Positions 16,551 through 54,212 of a DNA stretch of 64,000 bases are shown here, in pieces (within the stretch, counting starts at the first letter, position 1; every line of letters begins with the position of its first letter). The stretch covers positions 1 through 64,000 of the forward strand of contig UCKM01000022.1 of the NCBI GenBank assembly GCA_900473175.1. Direction: 5' to 3'. A model generated the notes under the pieces. That model was not told where the DNA came from. It saw nothing but the letters and a program-made list of their open reading frames with translations, and ran no database searches. The position numbers were made by a program, and so were the translations under genes. This DNA is from Hyphomicrobiales bacterium. GTDB taxonomy: Bacteria > Pseudomonadota > Alphaproteobacteria > Rhizobiales > Rhizobiaceae.

Positions 16551-19500
16551 CTACTCGTAGACGATCAGCAAGTCCTTGGCGTCGATCTGATCGCCAGCCC
16601 GGACAAGCACTTCCGCAACCGTGCCGTCGCGCTCCGCGCGCAACGCGGTTTCCATTTTCATCGCTTCGATGGAAAGCAGCACATCGCCTGCATTGACCTT
16701 CTGGCCGGTCGCAATGCCCACCGTCGAGACAATGCCCGGCATCGGGGCACCAACATGTTTGTCATTGCCAAGCTCAGCCTTGCGCCGGACGCCAGCGCCC
16801 CCGGCCGCGCGGGTGCGGTCCGGAACCTTCACGCGGCGCGGCTGGCCATTCAACTCGAAGAAGACCGTGCACATGCCCTTGTCGTCGGCTTCGCCCATGG
16901 CGAGATTGCGCACGACAAGCGTCTTGCCGCGCTCGATATCGAGGAAGACCTCTTCCTCCGGCGCAAGCCCATAGAAATAGACATGGGTCGGCAGAACGCT
17001 GGTCGGGCCGTAGGTGTCGTGCGTCACCGCGAAGTCGGTGAACACCTTGGGGTACATGAGATAGGACGCGAACTCCTGCTCGGTAACCTTGCGTTCGAGC
17101 TTGGTCTCGATCTCGCCGCGCTCGGCTTCAAGATCTGCCGCCTGCAGCAATGCGCCGGGCCGTTCGGTGAACGGCTTTTCGTCTTTCAGGACCTTCTTCT
17201 GAATATCCTTTGGCCAGCCCTTCGGCGGCTGTCCGAGGTCGCCGCGCATCATCGACACGACCGAATCCGGAAAGGCGATATCCTTGCTCGGGTTCTTTAC
17301 ATCCTCGACGGAAAGGTCCTGGCTGACCATCATCAGCGCCATGTCGCCCACGACCTTGGAGGACGGTGTAACCTTGACGATATCCCCGAACATCTGATTG
17401 ACGTCGGCATAGGCCTGGGCCACTTCGTGCCACCGGGTTTCGAGGCCAAGCGAACGGGCCTGCTCCTTGAGATTGGTGAACTGGCCGCCCGGCATCTCGT
17501 GCAGATAAACTTCGGAAGCCGGCCCCTTCAGGTCGCTTTCAAAAGCCGCATACTGGGTGCGCACCGCCTCCCAATAGAAGGAAATCCGGCGGATCCATTC
17601 CGGATCAAGGCCCGGGTCGCGCTCCGTACCTTTCAAGGCTTCTACGATCGAACCAAGGCATGGCTGCGAGGTATTGCCGGACAAGGCGTCCATGGCGGCG
17701 TCCACCACATCAACGCCCGCATCGACTGCGGCAAGCACAGTCGCGGCCGCAATGCCCGACGTGTCATGGGTGTGGAAATGCAAGGGAAGGTCAGTTGCCT
17801 CCCGCAACGCCTTGAACAGAACCTTGGCCGCACCCGGCTTCAACAACCCCGCCATGTCCTTGATGGCGATGATATGCGCCCCAGCCTTTTCGACTTGCTG
17901 GGCAAGATCGACATAGTATTTCAGATCATATTTCGGCCGGGCGGAGTTCAGGATGTCGCCGGTGTAGCAGATCGCCGCCTCGCACAGCTTGTTCTCCTCG
18001 ATCACCGCATCCATGCTGACGCGCATGTTCTCAACCCAGTTGAGGCTGTCGAACACGCGAAAGACGTCGATACCACCTCGTGCGGCCTGGCTGACGAAAT
18101 ATTTGACAACGTTGTCGGGGTAGCTCTTGTAGCCGACGCCGTTGGCGCCGCGCAGCAGCATCTGCAGCAAGATGTTCGGCGCCCGCTCGCGGACTTCAGC
18201 GAGGCGCTCCCACGGATCTTCGGTCAGAAACCGCATGGCGACGTCGAAGGTCGCGCCGCCCCAGCATTCCAGCGAGAAGAGTTGCGGCAGTGCCCGGGCA
18301 TAGGTGCCGGCGACGCGCGCAATGTCGAACGTGCGCATACGTGTCGCGAGCAGCGATTGATGCCCGTCGCGCATAGTGGTGTCGGTGAACAATACGCGCT
18401 TTTCGTTGCGCATCCATTCCGCGAACTTCTTTGGCCCAAGCTGGTCGAGAAGTTGCTTTGTACCATCGGGGATTGGCGCTTCGATGAAGGGTACGCGCGG
18501 CAGCGCCGCCTCCTTGGATGGCATGGCGCGGCCCTTGGTCTCGGGATGGCCATTGATCGTCACATCGGCGAGATAGGTCAGGAGTTTTGTGGCGCGGTCC
18601 TGCCGCTTGACCTGCGCGAACAGTTCGGGAGTCGTGTCGATGAACTTCGTCGTATAGGAATTGTCGATGAACTTCGGATGCGTAATGATCGCTTCCAGGA
18701 ACGTCAGGTTCGTCGCGACGCCGCGGATGCGGAATTCGCGCAGGGCACGGTGCATCCGGTGGATCGTCTCTTCGGCCGTGGGCGACCAGGCCGTGATTTT
18801 TTCAAGGAGCGGATCGTAGAAACGCGTGATAACCGCACCCGAATAGGCGGTGCCGCCGTCAAGGCGGATGCCGAAGCCCGTGGCCCCACGGTAGGCAGTG
18901 ATCCTGCCATAGTCCGGAATGAAGTTCTGCTCCGGATCTTCCGTGGTGATACGGCATTGCAGGGCATGGCCGTTAAGCTTGATGTCCTTTTGCGCAGGCA
19001 CGCCCGATTCCGGGGTACCGATCGTGGCGCCTTCAAGAATGCGGATCTGCGCCTTGACGATATCGATGCCGGTGACTTCTTCGGTAACCGTGTGCTCGAC
19101 CTGGATACGCGGATTGACTTCGATGAAATAGAAGGCGCTGGTATCGGAATCCATCAGGAACTCGATCGTTCCGGCACCGATATAATTGGTGGCCTTGGCG
19201 ATCTTCAGGCCATAGTCGCAGATTTCCTTGCGCTGCGCATCGCTAAGGTAGGGGGCAGGCGCGCGTTCGACGACTTTCTGGTTGCGGCGCTGGATCGAGC
19301 AATCGCGCTCGAAAAGGTGAACCGCATTGCCATGCGTATCACCGAGGATCTGCACTTCGACATGCCGTGCGCGCTGCACCAGCTTTTCGAGATAGACCTC
19401 ATCCTTGCCGAACGCTGCCTTGGCTTCGCGCTTGCCTTCCGTCACCTCACGGGCAATGTCTTCCGGTTTGAAGATCGCTCGCATGCCGCGTCCGCCACCG

Positions 19501-44145: not shown

Positions 44146-44235
44146 GGAGAGGTGGCTGAGTGGTTGAAAGCACCGCACTCGAAATGCGGCATGGGGGCAA
44201 CTCCATCGGGGGTTCAAATCCCTCCCTCTCCGCCA
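44146..44235 (+). tRNA. tRNA-Ser(CGA)
   Basis: 90 bases including CCA. The acceptor stem is GGAGAGG/CCTCTCC with discriminator G. D-arm region TGGCTGAGTGGTTGAAAGCA, anticodon loop CTCGAAA with anticodon CGA (reads UCG), a long variable arm typical of serine tRNAs, and T-arm GGGGGTTCAAATCCCTC. Its 3' end is the integration site of the element to its right. Confidence 0.96.
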
Positions 44236-44238
44236 TCG
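44222..44238 (+). repeat. attL core (tRNA 3' end)
   Basis: CTCCCTCTCCGCCATCG, identical to 54196-54212. The first 14 bases are the end of the tRNA-Ser, so integration left the tRNA intact. Confidence 0.88.
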
Positions 44239-44290
44239 AATTCCAACAAATAATTGATTTAATTGAATAATATTTCACCGGCAGTATCGC

Positions 44291-44312
44291 GATCCTAGCA
44301 ATAGTCCTAGCA
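44291..44312 (+). repeat. Left arm-type site pair, CCTAGCA twice
   Basis: GATCCTAGC, five variable bases, then TCCTAGCA. The two CCTAGCA copies start at 44294 and 44306, 12 bases apart. The same arrangement occurs at 54045-54066. It lies 53 bases inside attL and probably binds the integrase arm-recognition domain. Confidence 0.65.
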
Positions 44313-44315
44313 AAC

Positions 44316-45155
44316 TTACGGAAGCGTTACGCCAATTAATGCTGCGGCCCATTTGAGAGTATCATAAGCTTCCTTGAAGCGAGGCGTGAAGGAGATCGCG
44401 CCTGCAACACCAGTTATCAGCGCTTTGACCTTTGATGCGTTGGGCGTATCTTTGGCGACCTCAGTCTGTGCCTCAGACACCATTTCAGCGATCTCTCTGC
44501 GGTCAAAGTCGGCATCGTTGCTTGCGTTTTTAAGAGCTTCTTCGACACGAAGGAGTGCCCTTTCAATATCCGCACGGGACGATGCATCAATGTTTTGATT
44601 GGCTGTTCCGTAGCTACCCGGACCGGACTGAACCAAGCCGACAGGAGCATTAAATACATAGGTCTGACTTGCTGGCGATGTTGACAATGAGCCGCGAGCA
44701 TTGGAGGCGGCGATTAAATTGCACTCTCCGATTGCACGTTTAATCTCCAGATCGCCCAACGTTGTAAGGTTTGCAATTAATGGTTCGCCTCCAAACTTCG
44801 CTATCGCAGTGTCACCATATGGGGATGCTGATGCTAAGACCTCTTGCAACTGGGCAATTTGTGAGTTGGTCCACTGCCGCAGTGTAGAGATAGTCTCCTC
44901 TTTGTTGTCCTCCGTTAGTGCTACCCCATGCGCAGTCATTGAGCGCAATAGAATATTAAGAGCAGTTTGGACCCGTGTCGGTATCGAACGCCCTGCGTCT
45001 GTGAATACGGCGCGCAATCCAGCCGTACCGTGAAGATTTCCGGTTCGCACCAATTGATTGACTGTGCTTTGTACATCTAATTGTAACTGACGATCGAGTT
45101 TCTCGACCTCGACCGACACCAAAATATCAAAATCACGCTTGATTTCTTCCTTCAT
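44316..45155 (-). CDS. Hypothetical protein at the element's left edge (possible cargo or defence gene)
   Basis: 279 residues, not assigned to a family. The first 140 residues look helical and charged (MKEEIKRDFDILVSVEVEKL...). The centre has a Gly/Asn/Gln-rich, strand-prone segment, TYVFNAPVGLVQSGPGSYGT followed by ANQNID. Two helical segments follow, with a hydrophobic one near the end (VKALITGVAGAISFTPRF). The central motif resembles the GPVGAVQTG-type segments seen in several bacterial defence-associated or amyloid-prone proteins, but this is a visual likeness only. Its place beside attL, composition and isolation from the replication genes suit a cargo gene. Confidence 0.6.
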   Translation of the reverse strand: MKEEIKRDFDILVSVEVEKLDRQLQLDVQSTVNQLVRTGNLHGTAGLRAVFTDAGRSIPTRVQTALNILLRSMTAHGVALTEDNKEETISTLRQWTNSQIAQLQEVLASASPYGDTAIAKFGGEPLIANLTTLGDLEIKRAIGECNLIAASNARGSLSTSPASQTYVFNAPVGLVQSGPGSYGTANQNIDASSRADIERALLRVEEALKNASNDADFDRREIAEMVSEAQTEVAKDTPNASKVKALITGVAGAISFTPRFKEAYDTLKWAAALIGVTLP

Positions 45156-45341
45156 AGGAGTCCGTACCTCTCGTCACTTCCCGCGAACACGAACAACAAT
45201 CTATACTGATCAATCATAAAAGGTTCCGTATCGCAACGAGAACAGCGCGACTGATGGGGGGGGCGAAAGAATAGTCGCCGCAAAGGCGCGCATGAGTGTT
45301 GGATTTACCAAGTGAAGAGGAGTATCGGCTTCCTCCCTACC

Positions 45342-45608
45342 TTACCGCCTCCCGTGCAGCTGATCATTTTCCTTCTTGGCGGCTGCCCGACACTTATCGA
45401 TCCAATCCGCCAAGTCTTGTATGTGGACCCCTTTCGCCGCTTTCTGGCTGTTCTCTATTCGAGTTACGGGAATATCGATTTCTCCAGCAGTGACCTTACG
45501 AGCGAACTGGACCGGCGTCAGGTGGCTAAAATAGTCGCGACATACCGTTTCCAGGGGTACGATCGCTATCGCCCCATACTGCGCCATAAGCAAAAAAGCT
45601 GTGTTCAT
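45342..45608 (-). CDS. PrtN-family pyocin activator protein
   Basis: 88 residues matching the pyocin activator (PrtN) family along nearly the whole length: MNTAFLLMAQYGAIAIVPLE, then CRDYFSHLTPVQFARKVTAGEI, then RIENSQKAAKGVHIQDLADW. In Pseudomonas PrtN activates pyocin genes after the PrtR repressor is cleaved. Here it is downstream of a 90-aa gene in a unit whose promoter carries an RHH-type operator. The protein should be a DNA-binding activator of element genes; its targets are unknown. Confidence 0.85.
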   Translation of the reverse strand: MNTAFLLMAQYGAIAIVPLETVCRDYFSHLTPVQFARKVTAGEIDIPVTRIENSQKAAKGVHIQDLADWIDKCRAAAKKENDQLHGRR

Positions 45609-45644
45609 ATCTATCAGGCCTCCCTACCGGTGAAATCATCAGGT

Positions 45645-45917
45645 TCAATACGCACTTCTGCTGCACCCATAACGCTGCCAATACTTCCCATCCAGCCATG
45701 CATCTGCCATTTCCTTAACTGCGTTGTCCAAGCCACCATTGACCGGCAGGGCGGCGATCTGCTCCGCAATCTCATACACGGGATCGCTGGCAGCATTGAC
45801 CAAGGCGCACCATGGCTCAGGGGCGATATCGTCCGGAATTGCGTCCATGACAACTTTCGCCGCCGTTGCCGCGCGGTGAAGTGCGATGCCCATCGAAATG
45901 AGGTTGGAATTCTCCAT
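45645..45917 (-). CDS. Hypothetical phage protein, first gene of the PrtN operon
   Basis: 90 acidic, helical residues (MENSNLISMGIALHRAATAA, ending WLDGKYWQRYGCSRSAY). No family recognised. The ATG has AGGAGA five bases upstream, and a strong TTGACA/TATAGA promoter lies 40-68 bases before it. 36 bases separate it from the prtN-like gene, so the two are very likely co-transcribed. Confidence 0.65.
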   Translation of the reverse strand: MENSNLISMGIALHRAATAAKVVMDAIPDDIAPEPWCALVNAASDPVYEIAEQIAALPVNGGLDNAVKEMADAWLDGKYWQRYGCSRSAY

Positions 45918-45956
45918 GATGATCTCCTTTAAGATGCTGGATTAAACAATGGATCA

Positions 45957-46048
45957 TCTATAAACGATATCGTAAACTTTGTCAATTAACGATATCGTTT
46001 ATTCTCATGCCAACTCGAATTGACATAATATTCGATATCGTTTATTTC
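45957..46048. promoter_or_regulatory. Divergent promoters with three CGATATCG operators
   Basis: Minus promoter: TTGACA (45985-45980), 17-base spacer, TATAGA (45962-45957). Plus promoter: TTGACA (46020-46025), 17-base spacer, TATTTC (46043-46048). The palindrome CGATATCG occurs at 45965-45972 (inside the minus spacer), 45990-45997 (between the promoters) and 46033-46040 (inside the plus spacer). The first two extend to ACGATATCGT. All three have an adjoining TTTA on at least one side. The layout is that of a repressor switch. Confidence 0.7.
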
Positions 46049-46054
46049 TTAGCA

Positions 46055-46228
46055 ATGGGCAGACCTCCTTTAAATATGACGGCGACTGTTGTGCGATTTC
46101 CGGACGAAACTCTGGAGCGCATCGATAATCTCGTCGGCAATAAACAGCGCGCGAAATTCATTCGAGAAGCAGTCGTCAACGAGATCGAAAATCGTGAGAA
46201 GGTGGCTGCTCAGCAAAACTCCGAATAA
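46055..46228 (+). CDS. Ribbon-helix-helix (CopG/Arc-type) repressor, probably leaderless
   Basis: 57 residues from MGRPPLNMTATVVRFPDETL. The RHH fold is seen as a strand (TATVVRFP) followed by DETLERIDNLVGNKQRAKFIREAVVNEIE. The ATG at 46055 has no Shine-Dalgarno sequence and lies seven bases after the predicted -10 box, so the transcript should start at or next to the start codon, as for lambda cI from PRM. The frame is open 16 codons upstream, but that part spans the operator. Likely the element's repressor, acting on itself and on the PrtN operon. Confidence 0.8.
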   Translation: MGRPPLNMTATVVRFPDETLERIDNLVGNKQRAKFIREAVVNEIENREKVAAQQNSE

Positions 46229-46564
46229 TCGAAAATGTTCAAATTAGTCTCCTCAAGATAGTAGACATCTCGGCGGCATGAGAATTATATCAAATAAAAA
46301 ACGGCTTGGATTTAGCAAATATCGCAAAAGTTGATGTAAAAAATACAACGCGTTGCTATAATAACACCACGTGTTGCGAAAATTACAACGAACGACTTGC
46401 CGATTATTTGTAAATCTTATGACTGTCTCCGATTAACGTGAACCCAACAACCAGTTGATCATTGCAGATCGACCGACTGCGATCCGCAGGATCGCCCCAT
46501 CAGCGACAAGGCGAACGCCGAGAACCCGGCGTTCGTTGTAGATTTCGGCGATCTGAGACGCCTA
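46229..46564. other. Gene-free gap with promoter-like box and palindromes
   Basis: 336 AT-rich bases between convergent genes. TATAAT at 46357-46362 has TTGATG 20 bases upstream (46331-46336). A perfect palindrome CAACGCGTTG (46346-46355) and a related CACGTGTTGC 20 bases later overlap this promoter-like region. A hairpin pairs CGAACGCCG (46512-46520) with CGGCGTTCG (46527-46535). No open frame follows, so a small RNA is possible. Confidence 0.4.
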
Positions 46565-47731
46565 TTACCCGGCAGGCGTTGCAAAGATATTCGTGCCTAC
46601 CGCTGAATTCGCACCGGCAGTGATCGTGTACGACGATCCCCGAAAGGAATTGAAGCAGACTATATTGTAGTTGGATCCGACGCTATCGACGTAAATCTCA
46701 TAATTGGTGCTGGTCCGGGACATCTGCTTCGCGAAGTGGTTGTTCGTAATTTTGCAGGCGGTCATGTTCGAAACAAAGATGATGTCGTTGTCGATATTCC
46801 CGTCGAACTCGTTGCCATCGATTATCGAGGCCTGGGCGTAAACGATCGAGCTTGAGGCGTTGATCCCATGCCGGTTGTTTACGATCCGGTTCTTCGTGAT
46901 GAACACACGGGGACTGTCGATGATGACGACACCCTTACGTGTCGTCGCTCCGCCGTTGCTGGAGATATAGCAACTGTCAACCGTGACATCCATGCACTTG
47001 TTCAAGTAGATCGCAGCCTCGCCGCCGCTTCCCAAATCCCATCCGCATTTACCGATGTAGACCGACTGCCAGCCCAGAATGCGCAGATTGATGTTTGTCG
47101 CATTAATATTGTTACAGCTATCGAAGAACAAGCCATTCGAATAACCGTCAGCAAGCGGATCGTCGGCATATACCAACGTGTCATCGAACGACATGATATC
47201 GCGGAAATGCCAAAACGATGCTCCGCGCTCAAGGTAGATCGAGACCGTATTCGCCTGGAAGAAGCAACTTACGACATGAGACTGCCCCGTCCACTTTGAG
47301 TAGATCGCTCGCTCAAACCCGTAGAAAAAGCAGTTGTACACCCGAAGGTAGGTGTTGGCCGCGTTATCATCAAAGCCCATCATCTGGATCGCATATGATC
47401 CGGCAGTCTTGGGGTTGCCGTTCAACTGGAACATCAACCCGTCAAAGCTGACCACACTTGGTTGCTTGCCTGTTGTCCGAGCGTATTTGAACATCGGTTT
47501 TGCAGTGGTGAACATGCGAAGCTCGACCGTTCGCTGACCCGGCCCGGTAAACCGTAGGTTCTTTTCTAGCGGGATATTGATCGTGTCAGTGAACTTATAC
47601 GAAGCGCTGCCGAGCGCCGTTACAGGGAAATGCAGGCTATCGTTGTTCTTCATTACGTTGACAGCCGCTTGGACGTTCGTCGTCACGTCAGTCGTTGCGT
47701 CGTCAATGGCCCCGAACCAAGTGGCAATCAT
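46565..47731 (-). CDS. Tail-spike-like right-handed beta-helix protein (N-terminally truncated fragment)
   Basis: The 388-aa frame has the repeating short strands of a pectate-lyase-type beta-helix (YIGKCGWDLGSGGEAAIYLN, CYISSNGGATTRKGVVII, NRIVNNRHGINASS, NEFDGNIDNDIIFV). The opening WFGAIDDATTDVTTNVQAAV is the usual lead-in to phage spike beta-helices. Spike-like coding sequence continues upstream of this ATG to about 47891, including GAFKWTTGTFTTQIAADTQ and KANAIAASAGAWVRIYDG, with no start, and then hits a stop. The ATG used here overlaps the stop of the terminase gene (ATGA). A gene fragment left by deletion; it may still be translated by coupling. Confidence 0.7.
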   Translation of the reverse strand: MIATWFGAIDDATTDVTTNVQAAVNVMKNNDSLHFPVTALGSASYKFTDTINIPLEKNLRFTGPGQRTVELRMFTTAKPMFKYARTTGKQPSVVSFDGLMFQLNGNPKTAGSYAIQMMGFDDNAANTYLRVYNCFFYGFERAIYSKWTGQSHVVSCFFQANTVSIYLERGASFWHFRDIMSFDDTLVYADDPLADGYSNGLFFDSCNNINATNINLRILGWQSVYIGKCGWDLGSGGEAAIYLNKCMDVTVDSCYISSNGGATTRKGVVIIDSPRVFITKNRIVNNRHGINASSSIVYAQASIIDGNEFDGNIDNDIIFVSNMTACKITNNHFAKQMSRTSTNYEIYVDSVGSNYNIVCFNSFRGSSYTITAGANSAVGTNIFATPAG

Positions 47732-48423
47732 TGGGCCGTCATAGATACGAACCCATGCACCAGCCGAGGCCGCAATAGCGTTAGCCTTGATGTAGATACC
47801 TTCCTGCGTATCGGCTGCAATTTGCGTTGTGAACGTGCCAGTAGTCCATTTGAACGCGCCTGATCGAGAGCCTTCCAGCAGGATATGATCGTTGGGTCGT
47901 CACCCCGCCTCATAGCGCGTTCCATGCGATCCGCGAGGCCATCAAGCCCCTTAACCGCAATCTGATCCTGAAACGCATTGACGCGGATATGTTTGCCGAT
48001 CAGTTCTAGGCGGCGAATGCGATCCGACAGCTTTAGTTTCTTGACGACCCCGATCTGCTTTCGGCCCTCACCTTGCCCGTCGAACAGAGCATCGATCTCA
48101 ATTCCGGTAACGAGGCCCTGTTGCCAAATCAGGGGCCATTCATGAACAGATTTGAGGTCGCCGTTCTCGTCGTACAGATCAGCAATATTCGCGGTTGCTT
48201 CGTCCGCGAGGCGCTTTAGGACCCATACCGCGTCGATCTTGGTTTCTTCCGAGCGTTCAATCTTGGCAGCGTCGATTGCGGCCATCACGTCCGCATTCTC
48301 CAACAGGCGCGGTCCTTGTTGGTTAGCCGTCGCCTCACTATACCCGGCGCGGATTGCGGCCTGGGTAGCGTTCAGGTCGATCAAATAGTTTTCGACAAAG
48401 CGCGCTTGTTTTGGGGTCAACAT
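47728..48423 (-). CDS. Terminase small subunit with foreign C-terminus
   Basis: Residues 1 to about 175 are a Terminase_2-type small subunit: MLTPKQARFVENYLIDLNAT then QAAIRAGYSEATANQQGPRLL then IRRLELIGKHIRVNAFQDQI. The last 55 residues, after RAMRRGDD, are basic and unlike TerS. They are the out-of-frame reading of spike-gene sequence whose true frame is +1 to this one. The junction is near 47885-47900. The DNA-recognition half is intact, so DNA-packaging function is possible, but the oligomerisation or large-subunit contact part is replaced. No large terminase gene is present. Confidence 0.82.
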   Translation of the reverse strand: MLTPKQARFVENYLIDLNATQAAIRAGYSEATANQQGPRLLENADVMAAIDAAKIERSEETKIDAVWVLKRLADEATANIADLYDENGDLKSVHEWPLIWQQGLVTGIEIDALFDGQGEGRKQIGVVKKLKLSDRIRRLELIGKHIRVNAFQDQIAVKGLDGLADRMERAMRRGDDPTIISCWKALDQARSNGLLARSQRKLQPIRRKVSTSRLTLLRPRLVHGFVSMTAQ

Positions 48424-49054
48424 CCGAAATGGAACTCCGAGAAATTCATTCTCAAAGTCTATTGATGGATAGTTGCCGCCCGTTTCCGGATTTCCAGGAA
48501 ACCAACATTTACCAACGTGTCACGGGCGATGAAGTTCGCTCAGCCTATAGGGCCGGGTATGGCTGGTTTGTTACGAAAGTTACGTGTTACGACATTTTTC
48601 GAGGTTTTAACTCTGTAATATAGGGGAAGTTGTCTATATACCGACCTTTACCCTGTATTGATTGTTTCATTCATAAAAATCGTAACATCGTAACAAGAGC
48701 AATTTATCCAATTATCTCAAATGATTGGCTGTTACGAAGTGGCGGCAAAGTCCGTAATAAAAAGTAACATCCAAGACAATCGTAACGATTGTAAAATACC
48801 GTACACGCGACGAGGTCACCCCTGTGGAAAAGAGGTAAGTGGAGGGCGCGATATCCCCATTCTTGCCTGTGAATTATGGGGATTCACACGTGGAATCGAT
48901 TTTGATATGATTCGCTTTGCCTTCGTAGTTAGGTGATTTCAGAACGTGCGACACGGTGAAATTCTGCAGGCCGTAACACCGTCTTGGGACGGGAGTGCTA
49001 TGTAGGGTTAATTGCAGGCCCTATCACGTTCAAATCGGCGGTGGATAGTTCGCG
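48424..49054. other. Gene-free region between TerS and the PBECR-like gene
   Basis: About 630 AT-rich bases. Two short plus-strand frames (48411-48623, 48721-48936) have no ribosome sites or family likeness. The region holds the GTTACGA heptamer cluster listed separately, and GTGGAAAAGAGG-type purine-rich sequence after it. Confidence 0.55.
48570..48786. repeat. Cluster of GTTACGA/TCGTAAC heptamers (iteron-like)
   Basis: GTTACGA at 48570-48576, 48586-48592 and 48731-48737. GTTACGT at 48579-48585. The reverse form TCGTAAC is at 48680-48686, 48688-48694 and 48780-48786. Spacings within groups are 7-9 bases. In 217 bases the chance number of a 7-mer on both strands is about 0.03, so this is not random. 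Candidate binding sites for a replication initiator or a regulator of the element. Confidence 0.65.
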
Positions 49055-49065
49055 CTATCCACCGC
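49038..49065 (-). terminator. Hairpin overlapping the end of the PBECR-like gene
   Basis: GCGGTGGATAG (49038-49048) pairs perfectly with CTATCCACCGC (49055-49065) around a six-base loop. The gene's stop codon lies inside the stem. There is no T-run. Confidence 0.55.
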
Positions 49066-49468
49066 TACCCATTCGGCAAATGGGATCATATCTCCGCAGG
49101 AGCGAATTCCACTGGGACGGTTTGCACTGATGGAATGTCGTTATGTACGTCTCGTATCCTCCACCAGCGGATTTTATCGCGCCCTTAAAGCGTTTTCCGT
49201 TGTCCCGGTTCTCATACAGGACGCATGCTGAATTGCCGTTATTGGGAAGCCAAATGCCGTCACGGATCATCCACGGCAAGCAAAGCATATCAATGAGAGT
49301 GATGTCTGGATGTTTCTCCAGAATATGCTGCAACGAAACCCCCGAGATATATGCAATGCTGGTCGGACAACCGAGGTAATGGGAAACCGGGAGCGGCAGG
49401 TGACAAACGTTTACGTTGCCCTTTGGGTTGTTCCGTAAATTATCTAACTGCGAAAGTTCTAACGACAT
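49055..49468 (-). CDS. Hypothetical protein, possible PBECR-type (BECR-fold) nuclease domain
   Basis: 137 residues. The core YISGVSLQHILEKHPDITLI, then WMIRDGIWLPNNGNSACVLYE, then KRFKGAIKSAGGGYETYITT and FHQCKPSQWNSLLRRY follows the order seen in phage-borne BECR-fold domains: a His-containing helix, an aliphatic strand pair and a terminal THFH-like strand. The family call is by pattern only and could be wrong. Such domains occur in toxins and in phage proteins. No antitoxin-like partner is obvious unless it is the upstream HTH gene. Confidence 0.55.
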   Translation of the reverse strand: MSLELSQLDNLRNNPKGNVNVCHLPLPVSHYLGCPTSIAYISGVSLQHILEKHPDITLIDMLCLPWMIRDGIWLPNNGNSACVLYENRDNGKRFKGAIKSAGGGYETYITTFHQCKPSQWNSLLRRYDPICRMGSGG

Positions 49469-49490
49469 GCAATGAAGGTTCGACTAACAT

Positions 49491-49520
49491 GAGTGGCCAG
49501 AACACTGGTTCTGGCCACTC
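49491..49520 (-). terminator. Strong hairpin after the small HTH gene
   Basis: GAGTGGCCAGAAC (49491-49503) pairs with GTTCTGGCCACTC (49508-49520) around ACTG, seven bases after the stop. Thirteen perfect pairs; no T-run. Confidence 0.65.
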
Positions 49521-49526
49521 AAACTC

Positions 49527-49730
49527 CTAAGCGGCCCTATTGAGCCGTTTGATCGCATCCTCTCGGCTACCGATGTGCTTTTTGCCGGTTTTGATTTCGG
49601 AGATGCGGCCGATATTGGTGTCAAAATGGGCTGCTACCCGGCTCTGCAACTCGCCACGGAGCAACATAAGATGCACTTCTATAGCGTCTTCATACGTGAG
49701 CCTACGGCTCGGCATTCTCAGTATGGCCAT
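49527..49730 (-). CDS. Small helix-turn-helix DNA-binding protein
   Basis: 67 residues from ATG 49730 (AAGG nine bases upstream). LTYEDAIEVHLMLLRGELQS then RVAAHFDTNIGRISEIKTGKKH reads as a homeodomain-like or Cro-type HTH with the recognition helix GRISEIKTG. Similar short proteins occur in Rhizobiales prophages. Probably a regulator of the neighbouring element genes. Confidence 0.65.
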   Translation of the reverse strand: MAILRMPSRRLTYEDAIEVHLMLLRGELQSRVAAHFDTNIGRISEIKTGKKHIGSREDAIKRLNRAA

Positions 49731-50045
49731 CTGCCAATACCTTTCTACAAAAGGCCATGGCAAGGCTTGACATGCAACACGAATACGACAATTGTCGGCT
49801 CGTGATCACATATTGCCGCCCCACCATGGCGGTTTCTACACAAAAGACCGGTTCCGTGTATCAGACGGGACCGGTCTATTCTTTTGGGACAGAATCACCC
49901 AAAACGAACGCTGTCATGATTCCCCAAGATTACATTAATGTACAACCCAAAATGTTGTGTTAATACGTTGTTTACCCAAACAAAAAGCCCGCAAACAAGC
50001 GGGCCTCTTAAAGTGCGTGTCCATATTTGCGGTAGCATTGTTGTC
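49731..50045. terminator. Gap with two terminators after the VirE-type gene
   Basis: 315 bases without a gene. GCCCGC (49987-49992) and GCGGGC (49999-50004) form a stem followed by TTTTT on the minus strand, 42 bases after the helicase stop. A longer stem, 49845-49857 with 49865-49877 (13 pairs, one G-U), is followed by TTTT on the minus strand. Together they end the helicase transcript before the small HTH gene. Confidence 0.75.
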
Positions 50046-51731
50046 TTAAAATGCTTCATCCCTATATGGGTCGTTCGGCTCAAACACGATCCGGCCAGCC
50101 GAATATACAGCCCATTGAGCCTTTCCAACATCGCCGCGAATGTAGGCCCGGCAAGTGCCGCCGCCGTTCCTGACAACCTGTGACGGCACCTTGAAGCCAA
50201 GTCCTGACAGTGCGGAATGGAGGTGAGGTCGCCACCCTGGGAGCATCCGCAGTGTATCTTCACTGCCGCCTGTTAGCAGCTTTCGCGCTTCCGTGGCGGG
50301 TAACAACATGTCGCCGTTCGGGATGAGGTCGCAGATCAGTTCGAATGTTGGACCGTAATCGGTCTTGGTCTTGTTCAGATCATCGAGCGCGGCTTGCAAC
50401 TGCGGATCGTCCAGCCATAACGCTTCACTGCGGTGTACTGCCAAGACTTCGGCCCATATCTGATCCCGATCAGCCCTTATGCGATCAAGATCAATCCTTG
50501 CCGGGACAACTGGCCACCAACGCCGATTGCCAGTAGCATCAGTAAGAAACTCATCGCGATTTGTCGTAGCGTAAAAAACGAATTGGCGCGGCACTGTATC
50601 CGTTTTTCGCTTGTATGCGCCGCGCGCCTTGTCGTGAGTGACGGTGATGAATTTTTTGACAGCCTCGACTTCTTTGTTCGATTTTCCTGCAAGCTCGGCC
50701 AATTCAACAATGAGAATGCCACTGGTGTTTTCGATGACCTCTCTCGATTTGTCGGCCACGTTCACGCCTTCGCTCACCCACTCAGCGAGCGGTACCAGCG
50801 CCTTGCCAAATTCGGATTTCCCGAGGCCCTGAGCGCCTTGCAGGACCAGAACATGATCAAACTTACAACCCGGCTTAAACACGCGCCAGACGGCAGCGCA
50901 AAGCCATTTGCGACCAATAGCGCGGGTAAGCGGCGTATCCGGGGCTCCGAGATAAACCGTGAGAAAAGTGTCCAGCCGGTTGTTGCCATCCCATACCGGC
51001 AGGGATGCAAAGTAGTTCCTCACCGGATGATACGGCCTTCGCGCCGCAATTTTTTCGATCACAGGCGCGATGGTCGATATTTTGGGCGTCAAGTGCAGTC
51101 GCTCCAGCCATTCGACAGCTTCGGAGAGGTCAACGTCTTTGACCGGGCGGGGCACCCATTTCCCCCTGCTTACGTCCCAAGGTGGACGGCTGACGAACAT
51201 GGTCTCATTGGCAAACTCATCATAGGCCAGCATGTCTTTCGTCTCGGGAAGGTTTTCGAGGAACAGCGTCCAATTGCGAGTAAGATTGGGCAATGTCTTG
51301 CCGTCAGCATTTGTTACAAGCCCGGTGCGCCAGTCAGCATCGACAGCCGTAGGGATTGAAAGAATAAGGGGACAGTCCATCACCAACACCGGCGCATCTT
51401 CGCCCTCATCCTCGTCATCCGGTTTGCGATCGATGACAGTAGCAGGCAGCACGACGCCGTAGTCGTCAGGTCCATTGATCGGCGGCGCTTCCGACAGCCA
51501 GGGCATATCGTCAACCAGATCGCGTTCCTGGGGCTTCCTTGGCGATTTTTCATTTAGCGCCACACCAGGGAACAAATCTTCGAACTTTGTTTCGCCGGTA
51601 ACGGTAACGACCATTGCCCGCATGTACGCTTCGAGATCGACTTTCGTCCATCCGTCTTCAATAGCTTCGGCACAATCCCATCCCTTGGGCGGCAGCGCGC
51701 CCGATCGCCAATCTGAAAAGCTATAGGTCAT
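50046..51731 (-). CDS. VirE-family (PF05272-type) P-loop helicase/primase-like replication protein
   Basis: 561 residues. The C-terminal two thirds is a virulence-associated E-type ATPase: VRNYFASLPVWDGNNRLDTF, Walker A LQGAQGLGKSEFGKAL, Walker B-like GILIVELAELAG, RQFVFYATTNRDEFLTD and the arginine segment TGNRRWWPV. The first 170 residues are acidic and lack a visible primase zinc motif, so a separate or host primase may be needed. This is the usual replication protein of small integrated phage elements. Eight bases after a 136-aa gene. Confidence 0.85.
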   Translation of the reverse strand: MTYSFSDWRSGALPPKGWDCAEAIEDGWTKVDLEAYMRAMVVTVTGETKFEDLFPGVALNEKSPRKPQERDLVDDMPWLSEAPPINGPDDYGVVLPATVIDRKPDDEDEGEDAPVLVMDCPLILSIPTAVDADWRTGLVTNADGKTLPNLTRNWTLFLENLPETKDMLAYDEFANETMFVSRPPWDVSRGKWVPRPVKDVDLSEAVEWLERLHLTPKISTIAPVIEKIAARRPYHPVRNYFASLPVWDGNNRLDTFLTVYLGAPDTPLTRAIGRKWLCAAVWRVFKPGCKFDHVLVLQGAQGLGKSEFGKALVPLAEWVSEGVNVADKSREVIENTSGILIVELAELAGKSNKEVEAVKKFITVTHDKARGAYKRKTDTVPRQFVFYATTNRDEFLTDATGNRRWWPVVPARIDLDRIRADRDQIWAEVLAVHRSEALWLDDPQLQAALDDLNKTKTDYGPTFELICDLIPNGDMLLPATEARKLLTGGSEDTLRMLPGWRPHLHSALSGLGFKVPSQVVRNGGGTCRAYIRGDVGKAQWAVYSAGRIVFEPNDPYRDEAF

Positions 51732-51739
51732 ACCGCCAC

Positions 51740-52150
51740 CTAAATGTCGTCATCGACAAGAACGGGCACATTCATGCTGTCTTCATGGACGTGAGCATCG
51801 TATTTGCGTTCGATCTGATCTAGGTACTCTTCGACCCTCCAGATAAAACCAGACATGGCGTCGATCTGCCCGGCGATATCATCAGCAGCAGACCACACGT
51901 GAGCATAACGAGGTCGGAGTTCCGTAATCCATATAGGTTGATCGCGGGCGCTTCGCCAAAGGTAGCGGTCAGAACTTTGTAGGCCCGCATATGATCTCAA
52001 CAGGATATCCCGCTCAAAATTAGTAAGCTGAGCTAGTCGGAACATATGCTCAACACGAAGGCCGAGTTCTTCAATTTTTGGATGATTGAACGGTAAACGA
52101 TGGTTATTTCCGCACGAAGAACGCGGGGGGACGAGGGTATGTTCAGTCAT
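51740..52150 (-). CDS. Hypothetical protein between AlpA and the helicase
   Basis: 136 residues, mostly helical (KIEELGLRVEHMFRLAQLTN, FIWRVEEYLDQIERKYDAHV), acidic C-terminus ending VLVDDDI. Family unknown. It has AAGG before the ATG at 52150 and lies in the run AlpA - this gene - helicase, so a replication or control role is likely. Confidence 0.6.
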   Translation of the reverse strand: MTEHTLVPPRSSCGNNHRLPFNHPKIEELGLRVEHMFRLAQLTNFERDILLRSYAGLQSSDRYLWRSARDQPIWITELRPRYAHVWSAADDIAGQIDAMSGFIWRVEEYLDQIERKYDAHVHEDSMNVPVLVDDDI

Positions 52151-52275
52151 AATGCTGCCCTTGTTGGCTTGCTTTGGGCGGCTTTTGATGCAATAAACAC
52201 AACAGCGACGTAGTATTTATTGAGCCGACCTGGTGTTGTAACGACGCCGGGTTTTGCTTTTCCCGGCACGGCGGA

Positions 52276-52458
52276 TCATGCGGCATACACGGGGCGGCTT
52301 GCTGCAAACTCTGCGAGATCATCAGGGCGGAACATCGTCCGGTCACCGATCTTAACGGCCTTTAGGTCGCCTTTTTTGATGAGCGCATAGATATTCGTCC
52401 TACCGAGGCCGGTCACTTTGATGACTTCGTTGACACTGAGAAAGAGCTTCTGTTCCAC
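52276..52458 (-). CDS. AlpA/excisionase-type helix-turn-helix regulator
   Basis: 60 residues with LFLSVNEVIKVTGLGRTNIY then ALIKKGDLKAVKIGDRTMFR then PDDLAEFAAS, the MerR-like HTH_17 fold of AlpA and Xis proteins. GTG start with AAAGGA eight bases upstream. In P4-like elements AlpA switches on excision and integrase expression. Here the integrase is 250 bases further on the same strand, with repeats in between. Confidence 0.85.
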   Translation of the reverse strand: MEQKLFLSVNEVIKVTGLGRTNIYALIKKGDLKAVKIGDRTMFRPDDLAEFAASRPVYAA

Positions 52459-52804
52459 TTGGTAATTCCTTTCGTTTGTGCGCCAGTTTGCGCGTTAGTT
52501 CGCCTATGAATGGGACCCTAAAGCTCGAATGGTTGCCGCCAGTTATCGTTTTGCCATTTTCTTTTCATGACAGTTTCGCAACGTTCACTTTGGTTCACCT
52601 ATGAACGACGCTAACTCAAGGAATTCATTATGTTAATCATCGCGGTCTGGTTTAATGGTGACACGGTTTTTCAAAAATTTTAGGATGATCGCAAACGCTT
52701 GAAATACCTAGCGTTTGCGAGTTCACCATTGCCCAATGAAAGATTTTTCAGAGGTTTTGAGATGGCCCGAAACGCCAATTATCCACCGCTTGGCCGCCCA
52801 AATT
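52459..52804. promoter_or_regulatory. Control region between integrase and AlpA with repeats
   Basis: GTTCRCCTATGAAYG occurs at 52498-52512 and 52593-52607, and the shorter GTTCACC again at 52721. CGCAAACGC (52690-52698) and GCGTTTGCG (52711-52719) form a 9-bp inverted repeat with a 12-base loop, 86 bases after the integrase stop. Likely AlpA/Xis sites, the alpA promoter and an integrase transcript end. No gene seen. Confidence 0.5.
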
Positions 52805-54025
52805 TCAGGATATTTTCTTTTTTTTGGCCTCGCAGTAGTTCGCCCACGCTACCATCAGCTTGCGGCGTTTCTCCAAGGCATCGCCCCGCCGATATGCGCG
52901 CTCTGTCTCGTCTCCAATGACGTGGGCAAGCGCGGCCTCGGCTACCTCTCGCGGGAACGTGGAAACTTCTCCGCACCAATCGCGGAACGACGATCGAAAG
53001 CCGTGAACGGTGACGTAGATTTTCATTCTGCGCATCAACATGGTCATTGCGAGGTTGGACAGAGGCTTGCCCTTCTGTTTGCCGGGAAATACGAAGCCAG
53101 CAGGATCACTGCCAAGTGCGGCCATTTCCTCCAGGATAGCAATGCAGCGAGATGTGAGGGGAACTCTATGCTCCCGGCCAGCCTTCATCCGTTGTGGCGG
53201 CACAGTCCATACCTTCGCCTTCGTGTCGATCTCGGCCCAGGTAGCTCCGTACACCTCTCCCGATCGAGCGGCAGTGAGGATTGTAAATTCCAAGGCTCGG
53301 GCAGCAGTTGCAGGCCGGCTGCACAGATCGGCAACCAAACCAGGCACATCGGAATATGCCATTGCTGCATGATGACCGCGCTGGAGCTTCTTGCGCCTCT
53401 TCAGGATCGCGTCCAGATGTCCGCGCCACAACGCGGGGTTCTCTCCCGTCCTAAGCCTCTTGGCCTTGGCAGCGTCCAATACTCGCTCGATACGTCCGCG
53501 TATCCTGGACGCGGTTTCGGCCTTTGTGTGCCAGATCGGCTCCAGAACGGCTAGGACGTGGTCCGTCTCGATCTCATCTACTTTCTTGTTGCGCAGTGCC
53601 TTGCAATAGGTGTCACCTAACGTCATACGCCACTGTTCGACGTGCTTTACATTTCTAAATTCTCCGGCAAGGTGATCGTCAATCAGCGCGTCCGCAAACT
53701 CACCAAACGTGGGCACTGCGCTGACAGCTTTGCGCGCCTCCATGGGGTCGATGCCTTTCGCGATCGCTGCTCGCGCGGCAGTGGCCTTCTGCCGGGCATC
53801 AGCTAATGAAACATACTCGTACCGTTCACCCTTCTCGGTTTTCACCGGCAGGAATGCGCCCATCCCGATTTCTTTTTGCCGGCCTTGCCAACGGTACATG
53901 AAGACCCATTGCCGCCGACCCTCTGGAAGCACCTTGAGATACAAGCCCCCACCGTCACTATGCCGTCCCGGTCGGGAGAGGGCTTCTACTGCCTTAGCCG
54001 AAAATTTGTTGATTGGCCTTGCCAT
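52805..54025 (-). CDS. Tyrosine integrase (P4/phage type)
   Basis: 406 residues from MARPINKFSAKAVEAL. N-terminal DUF4102-type domain (GRHSDGGGLYLKVLPEGRRQ), SAM-like core-binding domain, then the catalytic domain with Arg in LTAARSGEVYGATW, HGFRSSFRDW (His-x-x-Arg), LAHVIGDETERAYRRGD carrying the later His and the Tyr nucleophile. Frame open to 54100, but that part crosses the arm sites. The start lies 20 bases from these sites, so Int may control its own promoter. Located 171 bases inside attR. Confidence 0.94.
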   Translation of the reverse strand: MARPINKFSAKAVEALSRPGRHSDGGGLYLKVLPEGRRQWVFMYRWQGRQKEIGMGAFLPVKTEKGERYEYVSLADARQKATAARAAIAKGIDPMEARKAVSAVPTFGEFADALIDDHLAGEFRNVKHVEQWRMTLGDTYCKALRNKKVDEIETDHVLAVLEPIWHTKAETASRIRGRIERVLDAAKAKRLRTGENPALWRGHLDAILKRRKKLQRGHHAAMAYSDVPGLVADLCSRPATAARALEFTILTAARSGEVYGATWAEIDTKAKVWTVPPQRMKAGREHRVPLTSRCIAILEEMAALGSDPAGFVFPGKQKGKPLSNLAMTMLMRRMKIYVTVHGFRSSFRDWCGEVSTFPREVAEAALAHVIGDETERAYRRGDALEKRRKLMVAWANYCEAKKKKIS

Positions 54026-54044
54026 GGGAACTCGCGCTGTAATT

Positions 54045-54066
54045 GATCCTAGCGCCGATCCTAGCA
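54045..54066 (+). repeat. Right arm-type site pair, CCTAGC twice
   Basis: GATCCTAGC, five variable bases, TCCTAGCA. CCTAGC copies start at 54048 and 54060, again 12 bases apart as at the left end. Overlaps the region just upstream of the integrase start. Confidence 0.65.
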
Positions 54067-54195
54067 CAATGCTTGATTGTTGACGAATGCAAAAATACAT
54101 AGCCGAACAGGAATGCGCCTAATACCCAGTATATATAAGGATTTCAGAGACAATATCGCATGTGAGTGAACTTCAGTGAATGATAGTTAGGCGGA

Positions 54196-54212
54196 CTCCC
54201 TCTCCGCCATCG
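54196..54212 (+). repeat. attR core
   Basis: Second copy of CTCCCTCTCCGCCATCG. The bases on both sides differ from the tRNA context, so this is the right end of the element, carrying only the displaced copy of the tRNA 3' end. Confidence 0.88.

What the first reader, a model, noticed from the sequence alone, without database searches (positions are those of the whole stretch)
44222..54212. 10-kb phage-derived element in tRNA-Ser(CGA) with replication and TerS but no structural module
Seen: a 17-bp core repeat at both ends, the tRNA intact at the left, an integrase at the right. Gene order is integrase, AlpA, unknown, VirE-type helicase, HTH, PBECR-like, TerS, spike fragment, RHH, PrtN operon, unknown. 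Known: P4-like and PICI satellites carry int-alpA-primase/helicase and sometimes TerS, and steal helper capsids. Inference: an alphaproteobacterial satellite, or a decayed prophage that converged on this form.
Basis: partly seen in the sequence, partly recalled or inferred. Interest (0 to 1): 0.72.

Follow-up and report, generated by a model that had tools for sequence, protein, structure and literature searches.

The report
Gutted prophage in a tRNA-Ser gene
A 10-kb mobile element in a bacterial genome looks like a 'satellite' that parasitises viruses, but is best read as a virus genome that lost its particle-building genes in an internal deletion, while its genes for moving and copying itself still look intact.

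Summary
In detail: a 17-bp repeat bounds 44222-54212, with intact tRNA-Ser(CGA) at the left and an integrase at the right. The PBECR and RHH labels are unconfirmed. The satellite inference is weaker. The 'TerS' frame is a chimera: TerS homology ends at 47893-47905, and a tail-spike gene starts mid-protein at 47875, where six relatives examined have 74-313 more open-frame residues before that point. The two genes meet at a scar where terminase, portal, capsid and tail genes would lie. A same-genus prophage (G403) has TerS (61% identical), TerL, portal, capsid and a spike in that order, 21.6 kb between the two points, and a 77%-identical PrtN. Of 24 non-own TerS relatives checked, 19 have TerL within 4 kb. 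The same genome holds a deader 3.8-kb remnant in tRNA-Ser(GGA) with a related spike. Integrase, PrtN-type excisionase, VapE helicase and a candidate iteron origin look intact, so excision and replication are plausible. Repeat arrays 3' of VapE, a layout reported as private to PICI satellites, occur in 30 of 94 VapE relatives and 4 of 6 phage records, so they do not diagnose a satellite.

The parts
44146..44235 (+). tRNA-Ser(CGA), intact attachment gene
44222..44238 (+). attL core, 17-bp repeat overlapping the tRNA 3' end
44316..45155 (-). 279-aa accessory protein at the element edge; weak match to PADLOC candidate PDC-M14B; homologue beside tRNA-Glu in G086
45342..45608 (-). PrtN-family protein, probable recombination directionality factor (excisionase)
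   Evidence: RdfN precedent in PMC8409611 (passages)
45645..45917 (-). 90-aa protein of unknown family, next to PrtN on the same strand
   Evidence: no family hit
45962..46043 (.). three CGATATCG palindromes (45965, 45990, 46033) between the PrtN-side genes and the divergent RHH gene; candidate operators
46007..46228 (+). ribbon-helix-helix-like small protein, the only listed gene on the other strand; candidate repressor (true start may lie further in)
   Evidence: read from sequence; no Pfam hit
46565..47875 (-). tail-spike gene lacking its N-terminal part; ATG-started ORF 46565-47731
47876..47904 (-). deletion junction interval between the end of TerS homology (47893-47905) and the start of spike homology (47875)
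47728..48423 (-). terminase small subunit frame (231 aa), first 173-177 residues TerS, remainder chimeric
48570..48786 (.). iteron array: three GTTACG at the left, then a 68% AT stretch (48593-48680), then two CGTAAC, one GTTACG and one CGTAAC; candidate replication origin
49055..49468 (-). 137-aa protein, 'PBECR-like' not confirmed
49527..49763 (-). 78-aa HTH-like protein, label from sequence only
50046..51731 (-). VapE-like replication helicase, 561 aa
51740..52150 (-). 136-aa protein of unknown family
52276..52458 (-). AlpA-like regulator/excisionase, 60 aa
52805..54100 (-). tyrosine-type integrase, 431 aa
54196..54212 (+). attR core, 17-bp repeat

Best explanation
A temperate prophage, probably of podovirus type, integrated in tRNA-Ser(CGA) and then lost one block, from the 3' end of TerS to inside its tail-spike gene (about residue 80-310 in relatives). 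That removed TerL, portal, capsid and tail genes and left a 10-kb mosaic remnant. Shown: the att repeat, the chimeric TerS frame, the truncated spike, and the same two genes on either side of the structural block in a same-genus prophage. Inferred: that it was a single event, the podovirus type, and that integrase, PrtN/AlpA, VapE and the iteron origin still work. If they do, the element can excise (PrtN as directionality factor, probably held down by the RHH protein at the CGATATCG sites) and replicate from the iterons. It cannot make particles, and would spread only if a helper phage's terminase accepted its altered TerS or packaged it by chance.
For: TerS aligns to residue 173 in G227, G403 and L075, and at most to 177 in the phage records listed; the frame then runs on in spike DNA. 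The spike starts mid-protein: the six homologues examined have open frame before that point, 243 and 313 residues in phages RHph_X2_24 and 16-3 (annotated coding 243 and 247) and 74, 213, 231 and 291 in four of the seven other family genomes with a match. G403 prophage: TerS 60.7%, then TerL, portal (phrog_332), major head protein, tail protein, endolysin-type protein, a 2198-aa protein, spike; TerS end to spike point 21.6 kb; PrtN 77.3%. TerL within 4 kb of TerS in 19 of 24 non-own relatives given. Three of five loci with both an Int and a VapE match carry phage structural genes beyond VapE: L181, L032, L030. Same genome: a second, deader remnant in tRNA-Ser(GGA) with a 77%-identical spike piece. 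No other copy of the element in 393 family or 19 genus genomes.
Against: The exact ancestor was not found. G403 has another integrase, another place (beside a dusA-like gene, label recalled) and another gene order, no att repeat was found for it, and its VapE likeness is only in residues 3-41. The sister VapE (L024, 65.5%, support 1.0) sits among transporter, methylase and helicase genes with no structural gene found. G227 has AlpA-like, VapE (45%), repeats and TerS (64%) in the same order with no TerL found on its contig. Of the five Int-plus-VapE loci, L055 and L069 gave no structural match by tblastn (not family-scanned). The spike-bearing frame of the second remnant had no match in the G403 stretch at E 1. 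No stop or frameshift was noticed in the retained genes apart from the junction (not tested systematically), so decay is recent or opposed by selection. TerL was not found near TerS in 5 of 24 relatives.
Confidence: 0.75

Rival explanations
1. A PICI- or P4-like satellite lineage (int, alpA, VapE helicase, iteron origin, terS) whose distal part recombined with a prophage late region, picking up the spike fragment. It excises, replicates and uses TerS to enter helper particles.
For: Order and direction match the Gram-negative PICI description in the passages read of PMC6092414: int, regulator, replication gene, origin, then terS, with all listed genes but one on one strand; repeats lie on both sides of an AT-rich stretch. 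The sister VapE (L024) and the VapE-TerS pair of G227 lie where no structural gene was found. TerS residues 1-173 align with phage TerS.
Against: TerS is nearest by path to a full-length prophage (G403 0.77, G227 0.82, L075 0.85; fork unresolved, bootstrap not settled). Arrays 3' of VapE are not satellite-specific. By tree path the next VapE after L024 is L030, which has a capsid gene. The spike fragment is unexplained by satellite function. No second copy. The only phrog_2 TerL found in the own genome lies in a cluster that looks like a gene transfer agent (label recalled), so no resident helper is evident; but that genome search also missed the TerL of G403, so the absence is weak.
Confidence: 0.15
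2. A mosaic island built from several prophage pieces (integrase-VapE part from one element, TerS-spike part and PrtN from others), kept for its edge gene (279-aa protein) as a defence or other accessory island.
For: PrtN is 77% identical to that of a prophage beside dusA, not tRNA-Ser. The 279-aa protein weakly matches a PADLOC candidate family (8.9e-6), and its homologue in G086 also sits next to a tRNA.
Against: One deletion in a mosaic phage explains the same map with fewer events. The 279-aa protein was found in only 1 of 246 other family genomes. The PADLOC match covers only residues 184-259.
Confidence: 0.1

Closest known systems
Defective (cryptic) prophages with internal deletions
   Same: att sites, integrase and early genes kept, structural block gone, truncated late genes at the scar
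   Different: damage noticed only at the scar, and the kept set mimics a satellite
Gram-negative PICIs (PMC6092414, passages read)
   Same: int, alpA-type regulator, replication gene, repeats on both sides of an AT-rich stretch, terS, mostly one direction of transcription
   Different: carries a phage spike fragment, TerS is chimeric, the array is 1.26 kb rather than immediately 3' of the replication gene and not cleanly two opposed sets, no demonstrated helper
   Same: TerS 61%, PrtN 77%, spike module 34% over 71 residues, VapE N-terminus 64% over 39 residues; DNA matches of 71-82% in PrtN, TerS and VapE
   Different: about 46 kb by gene content (ends not defined), different integrase and site, complete structural block
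Locus L024 in Rhizobiales bacterium AFS069108
   Same: VapE sister (65.5%) with a repeat array just after it
   Different: no match to the element's integrase, AlpA or TerS; DNA methylase, helicase and Mrr/IrrE-type genes instead

Membership tests
Defective prophage | Recombination module and att sites of a temperate phage | tested here: met
Defective prophage | Phage late genes truncated or missing compared with full-length relatives | tested here: met
Defective prophage | Close full-length relative with the same integrase and site (helpful, not strictly required) | tested here: not met
   G403 has another integrase and place; none or 63
PICI (Gram-negative), criteria from PMC6092414 | int, replication module and master regulator in conserved order | tested here: met
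   criteria
[quoted passage not shown]
   388-codon spike ORF remains
PICI (Gram-negative), criteria from PMC6092414 | Attachment site never occupied by prophages | tested here: inconclusive
   7 of 18 other same-genus loci inspected; ORF lists of 4 read by eye without a family scan, no prophage recognised; weak partial AlpA matches in 2. A phage remnant uses tRNA-Ser(GGA)
PICI (Gram-negative), criteria from PMC6092414 | Origin with two iteron sets flanking an AT-rich region immediately 3' of the replication gene | tested here: inconclusive
   repeats on both sides of an AT-rich stretch, but 1.26 kb from VapE and of mixed orientation on one side; arrays also follow VapE in phages, so not diagnostic
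PICI (Gram-negative), criteria from PMC6092414 | Size about 12-15 kb | tested here: inconclusive
   9.99 kb
PICI (Gram-negative), criteria from PMC6092414 | Helper-dependent induction, packaging and transfer | not testable with these tools
   needs experiment
P4-like satellites (features recalled) | alpha-type primase-helicase, Psu/Sid/Delta capsid-hijack genes | tested here: not met
   VapE-type helicase instead; no such match among the 10 proteins given to PHROGs (RHH and HTH78 not given)

The most novel reading that the evidence does not exclude
This is a satellite at birth. One deletion has reduced a temperate phage to the integrase-regulator-helicase-origin-TerS set of a PICI, still able to excise and replicate and perhaps to be packaged through its own TerS. 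Together with G227 it would represent a VapE-iteron-TerS satellite form in this family, and the PICI-type origin would be inherited from VapE phages rather than private to satellites.
Probability: 0.12. Interest if true: 0.65.

Novelty: new member of a known kind. Interest (0 to 1): 0.36.

Why it matters
Short elements with int, alpA, a helicase and terS can be called satellites from gene content alone. This case shows that an internal deletion can give the same content, and that a frame check at TerS helps tell the two apart. The side result is more general. [quoted passage not shown] If the full layout is confirmed there, it should not be used alone to identify PICIs, and it bears on where their replication module came from.

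Tried and rejected
Viral-contig scans: the spike matched no pattern, and the 279-aa protein gave no relative. tblastn of the 279-aa protein found no phage record and 1 plasmid (Beijerinckia indica, 26%). Megablast of the element against plasmids: no match. The predicted structure of the 279-aa protein was poor (mean pLDDT 54) and is not used. A tblastx printed nothing (the program may be absent), so it is no evidence. I considered the iterons as a packaging site because they lie next to TerS. CGTAAC arrays were not seen upstream of TerS in six relatives, while arrays follow VapE in many, so I favour an origin; G227 has repeats between VapE and TerS that fit either. I considered L024 as a full-length prophage; its neighbours are transporter, methylase, helicase and SDR genes. 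Integrase relatives in 12 family genomes (51-68%) and G397 (55%) have no VapE or TerS match in the fetched stretches of 16-20 kb, one showing a weak AlpA match, so they are not copies of the element. Weak TerS rows G219, G271 and G280 (E 3e-4 to 8e-4) were left out of the TerL count, and L114 as a near copy of L113. Spike rows G237, G062 and G013 were not examined for their N-terminus. Paper searches were seen as listings; passages of two papers were read.
Full report
WHAT IS THERE. The element runs from 44222 to 54212. A perfect 17-bp repeat bounds it; the left copy is the 3' end of an intact tRNA-Ser(CGA), and the right copy lies 96 bp beyond the start of the integrase. Chance recurrence of any 17-mer of a tRNA in 20 kb is about 9e-5, and GC is 0.513 against 0.586 outside. 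A ribbon-helix-helix-like gene alone is on the other strand.

THE SCAR. TerS alignments with G227, G403 and L075 end at residue 173 (window 47905); G111 reaches 175, and the longest of the phage records listed reach 177 (47893). The element's frame then continues to 231 codons. The spike frame is recognisable from 47875 downwards. It matches tail fibres of Rhizobium phages RHph_X2_24 (58%) and 16-3 (51%) from its first residue. In those phages 243 and 313 open-frame residues precede that point (243 and 247 by annotation), and 74, 213, 231 and 291 in four of the seven other family genomes with a spike match. So within about 30 bp a TerS gene loses its end and a spike gene starts in its middle, out of frame with TerS. 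That is what a deletion from TerS to the spike leaves.

THE FULL-LENGTH RELATIVE. A DNA search of 20 genus genomes, own included, led to G403. Its contig C1 holds a prophage of about 46 kb by gene content, beside a dusA-like gene (name recalled); its ends are not defined. Its order on one strand is TerS (60.7% to the element), TerL (phrog_2, 6e-35), portal (phrog_332, 8e-154; podovirus type recalled), major head protein, tail protein, an endolysin-type protein, a 2198-aa protein of a PHROG without function, and a 654-aa spike whose matching part (34% over 71 residues) begins after 80 residues. A VapE-region primase, an endolysin and an integrase follow, and PrtN (77.3%) lies at the other end. 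DNA matches of 71-82% lie in PrtN, TerS and the VapE start. From TerS end to spike point is 21.6 kb. Two viral records have the element's order with the block present: L113 has VapE, TerS (28%), TerL (64% to G403), portal and capsid; G406 (L075, L272) has VapE (31%), TerS (59%), TerL (75%), portal and capsid. Of five loci with both an Int and a VapE match, three carry structural genes beyond VapE: L181 (internal-virion-protein family phrog_418, endolysin), L032 (TerL, tape measure) and L030 (capsid, PF05065); L055 and L069 gave none by tblastn and were not family-scanned.

HOW OFTEN TERS IS FOLLOWED BY TERL. I gave 24 non-own genomes or records with a TerS relative: 16 of the 19 non-own genomes, G403, and seven viral records. 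TerL lies within about 4 kb on the same strand in 19: nine genomes and five viral records by phrog_2 (the match in G411 is weak, 1.3e-6, with stops inside), G403 by direct scan (the genome search missed it), and G279, G161, G406 and G407 by tblastn. G174 has portal and capsid matches but no TerL found. G189, G264, G034 (contig ends about 1.3 kb on) and G227 have none found. TerL, portal, capsid and one virion-protein query found nothing in the window.

A SECOND REMNANT. On contig C23 of the same genome, tRNA-Ser(GGA) at 16758-16848 and an 18-bp repeat at 16832 and 20651 bound a 3.8-kb relic. It holds a spike piece 77% identical to the element's over residues 12-239, run on to an internal-virion-protein fragment (phrog_6651), a resolvase, and a 182-aa piece with only a DUF6538 domain, probably an integrase N-terminus. 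Its spike-bearing frame had no match in the G403 stretch. I infer that this genome has lost phage structural blocks more than once.

HOW IT MOST LIKELY WORKS. Integrase and att sites look complete. PrtN-family proteins include a proven recombination directionality factor: in a dusA island of Vibrio, deleting rdfN abolished excision (PMC8409611, passages read). PHROGs files the family as excisionase. Three CGATATCG palindromes between the PrtN side and the divergent RHH gene suggest RHH repression of excision; this is inference. VapE resembles a solved VapE homologue (7pds, 2e-42). Seven CGTAAC/GTTACG hexamers lie in 217 bp (48570-48786): three on the left, then a 68% AT stretch, then four of mixed orientation. 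It is the densest hexamer cluster of the whole window; 60 shuffles of the element reached at most 5. I read it as the origin. Excision and replication are plausible; self-packaging is not.

THE ARRAY IS GENERAL. In a first count, 32 of 103 VapE loci had at least five copies of one 7-mer in 220 bp within 1.5 kb downstream, against 3 of 103 upstream. In a second, of 128 loci with a VapE relative, 12 were too short and 22 were dropped as near copies; of the remaining 94, 30 had such an array downstream, against 1 of 470 shuffles, and 29 of the 30 start within 80 nt of the stop codon. Of the 20 viral records among the 30, 7 carry a phrog_2 TerL at E 0.001, three of them strongly (below 1e-25); 11 of 14 control genomes also ring at that threshold. 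Of six phage records, picked by hand from the 20 listed of 774 with a VapE match, four show an array (Marinobacter PS3, Corynebacterium Adelaide and StAB, Pseudomonas LPPA36, the last 380 nt after the stop); two Bacteroides phages do not. [quoted passage not shown] I counted dense arrays only; the two-set AT-rich layout was looked at by eye in the element and L181. A search for 'VapE' with 'iterons' found no paper in the held library; another on iterons with phage and satellite terms listed five, one of them PMC6092414.

THE CASE FOR A SATELLITE. The sister VapE (L024, support 1.0) and the VapE-TerS pair of G227 lie where no structural gene was found, and the retained gene set and direction are PICI-like. 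Against this stand the spike fragment, the chimeric TerS, a TerS tree that gives no separate satellite clade (unresolved; it held the element twice), L030 with a capsid gene as the next VapE by path, and the absence of a second copy in 393 other family genomes and 19 other genus genomes (in one search only two candidate places per genome were scored). The only phrog_2 TerL found in the own genome is in a cluster that looks like a gene transfer agent (label recalled), not an obvious helper.

VERDICT. A gutted mosaic prophage, probably podoviral, with live-looking recombination and replication modules: 0.75. Satellite lineage 0.15, multi-piece accessory island 0.10.

Noticed in passing
own genome contig C23, 16758-20668 (L177 16758-20000, L178 1-668): A 3.8-kb dead prophage relic in tRNA-Ser(GGA) with an 18-bp att repeat, a related spike piece run on to an internal-virion-protein fragment, a resolvase and a probable integrase N-terminal piece.
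   Followed up: yes
48570-48786: Iteron array between TerS and the 137-aa gene; arrays of other words follow VapE genes in about a third of relatives and in complete phages.
   Followed up: yes
L279 and L283, just 3' of the VapE-type gene: Corynebacterium phages Adelaide and StAB have similarly placed arrays built from different words (GGGACAA against GAACAAC); whether origin and helicase co-vary is worth testing.
   Followed up: no
44316-45155; G086 contig C337 7789-8628 (L237): The 279-aa protein weakly matches a PADLOC defence candidate (PDC-M14B), and its 41% homologue also sits beside a tRNA gene, in a stretch with HicAB-like genes (label recalled).
   Followed up: partly
G397 contig C33, just after tRNA-Ser(CGA) (L262, L266): GATCCTAGCA repeats like those near both ends of the element follow this tRNA, with no match to the element's integrase there: possible scar of an old integration and possible integrase arm sites.
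   Followed up: partly
L204 4277-7853 (G227 contig C21): AlpA-like (label from sequence), 132-aa, VapE and TerS genes in the element's order, with TGGAACC-type repeats between VapE and TerS, then an IS21-type insertion and an Eco57I-type methylase.
   Followed up: partly
G000 contig C33, 68564-83540 (L284, L285): Terminase and capsid matches in a cluster that looks like a gene transfer agent (label recalled); the only phrog_2 terminase found in this genome.
   Followed up: partly
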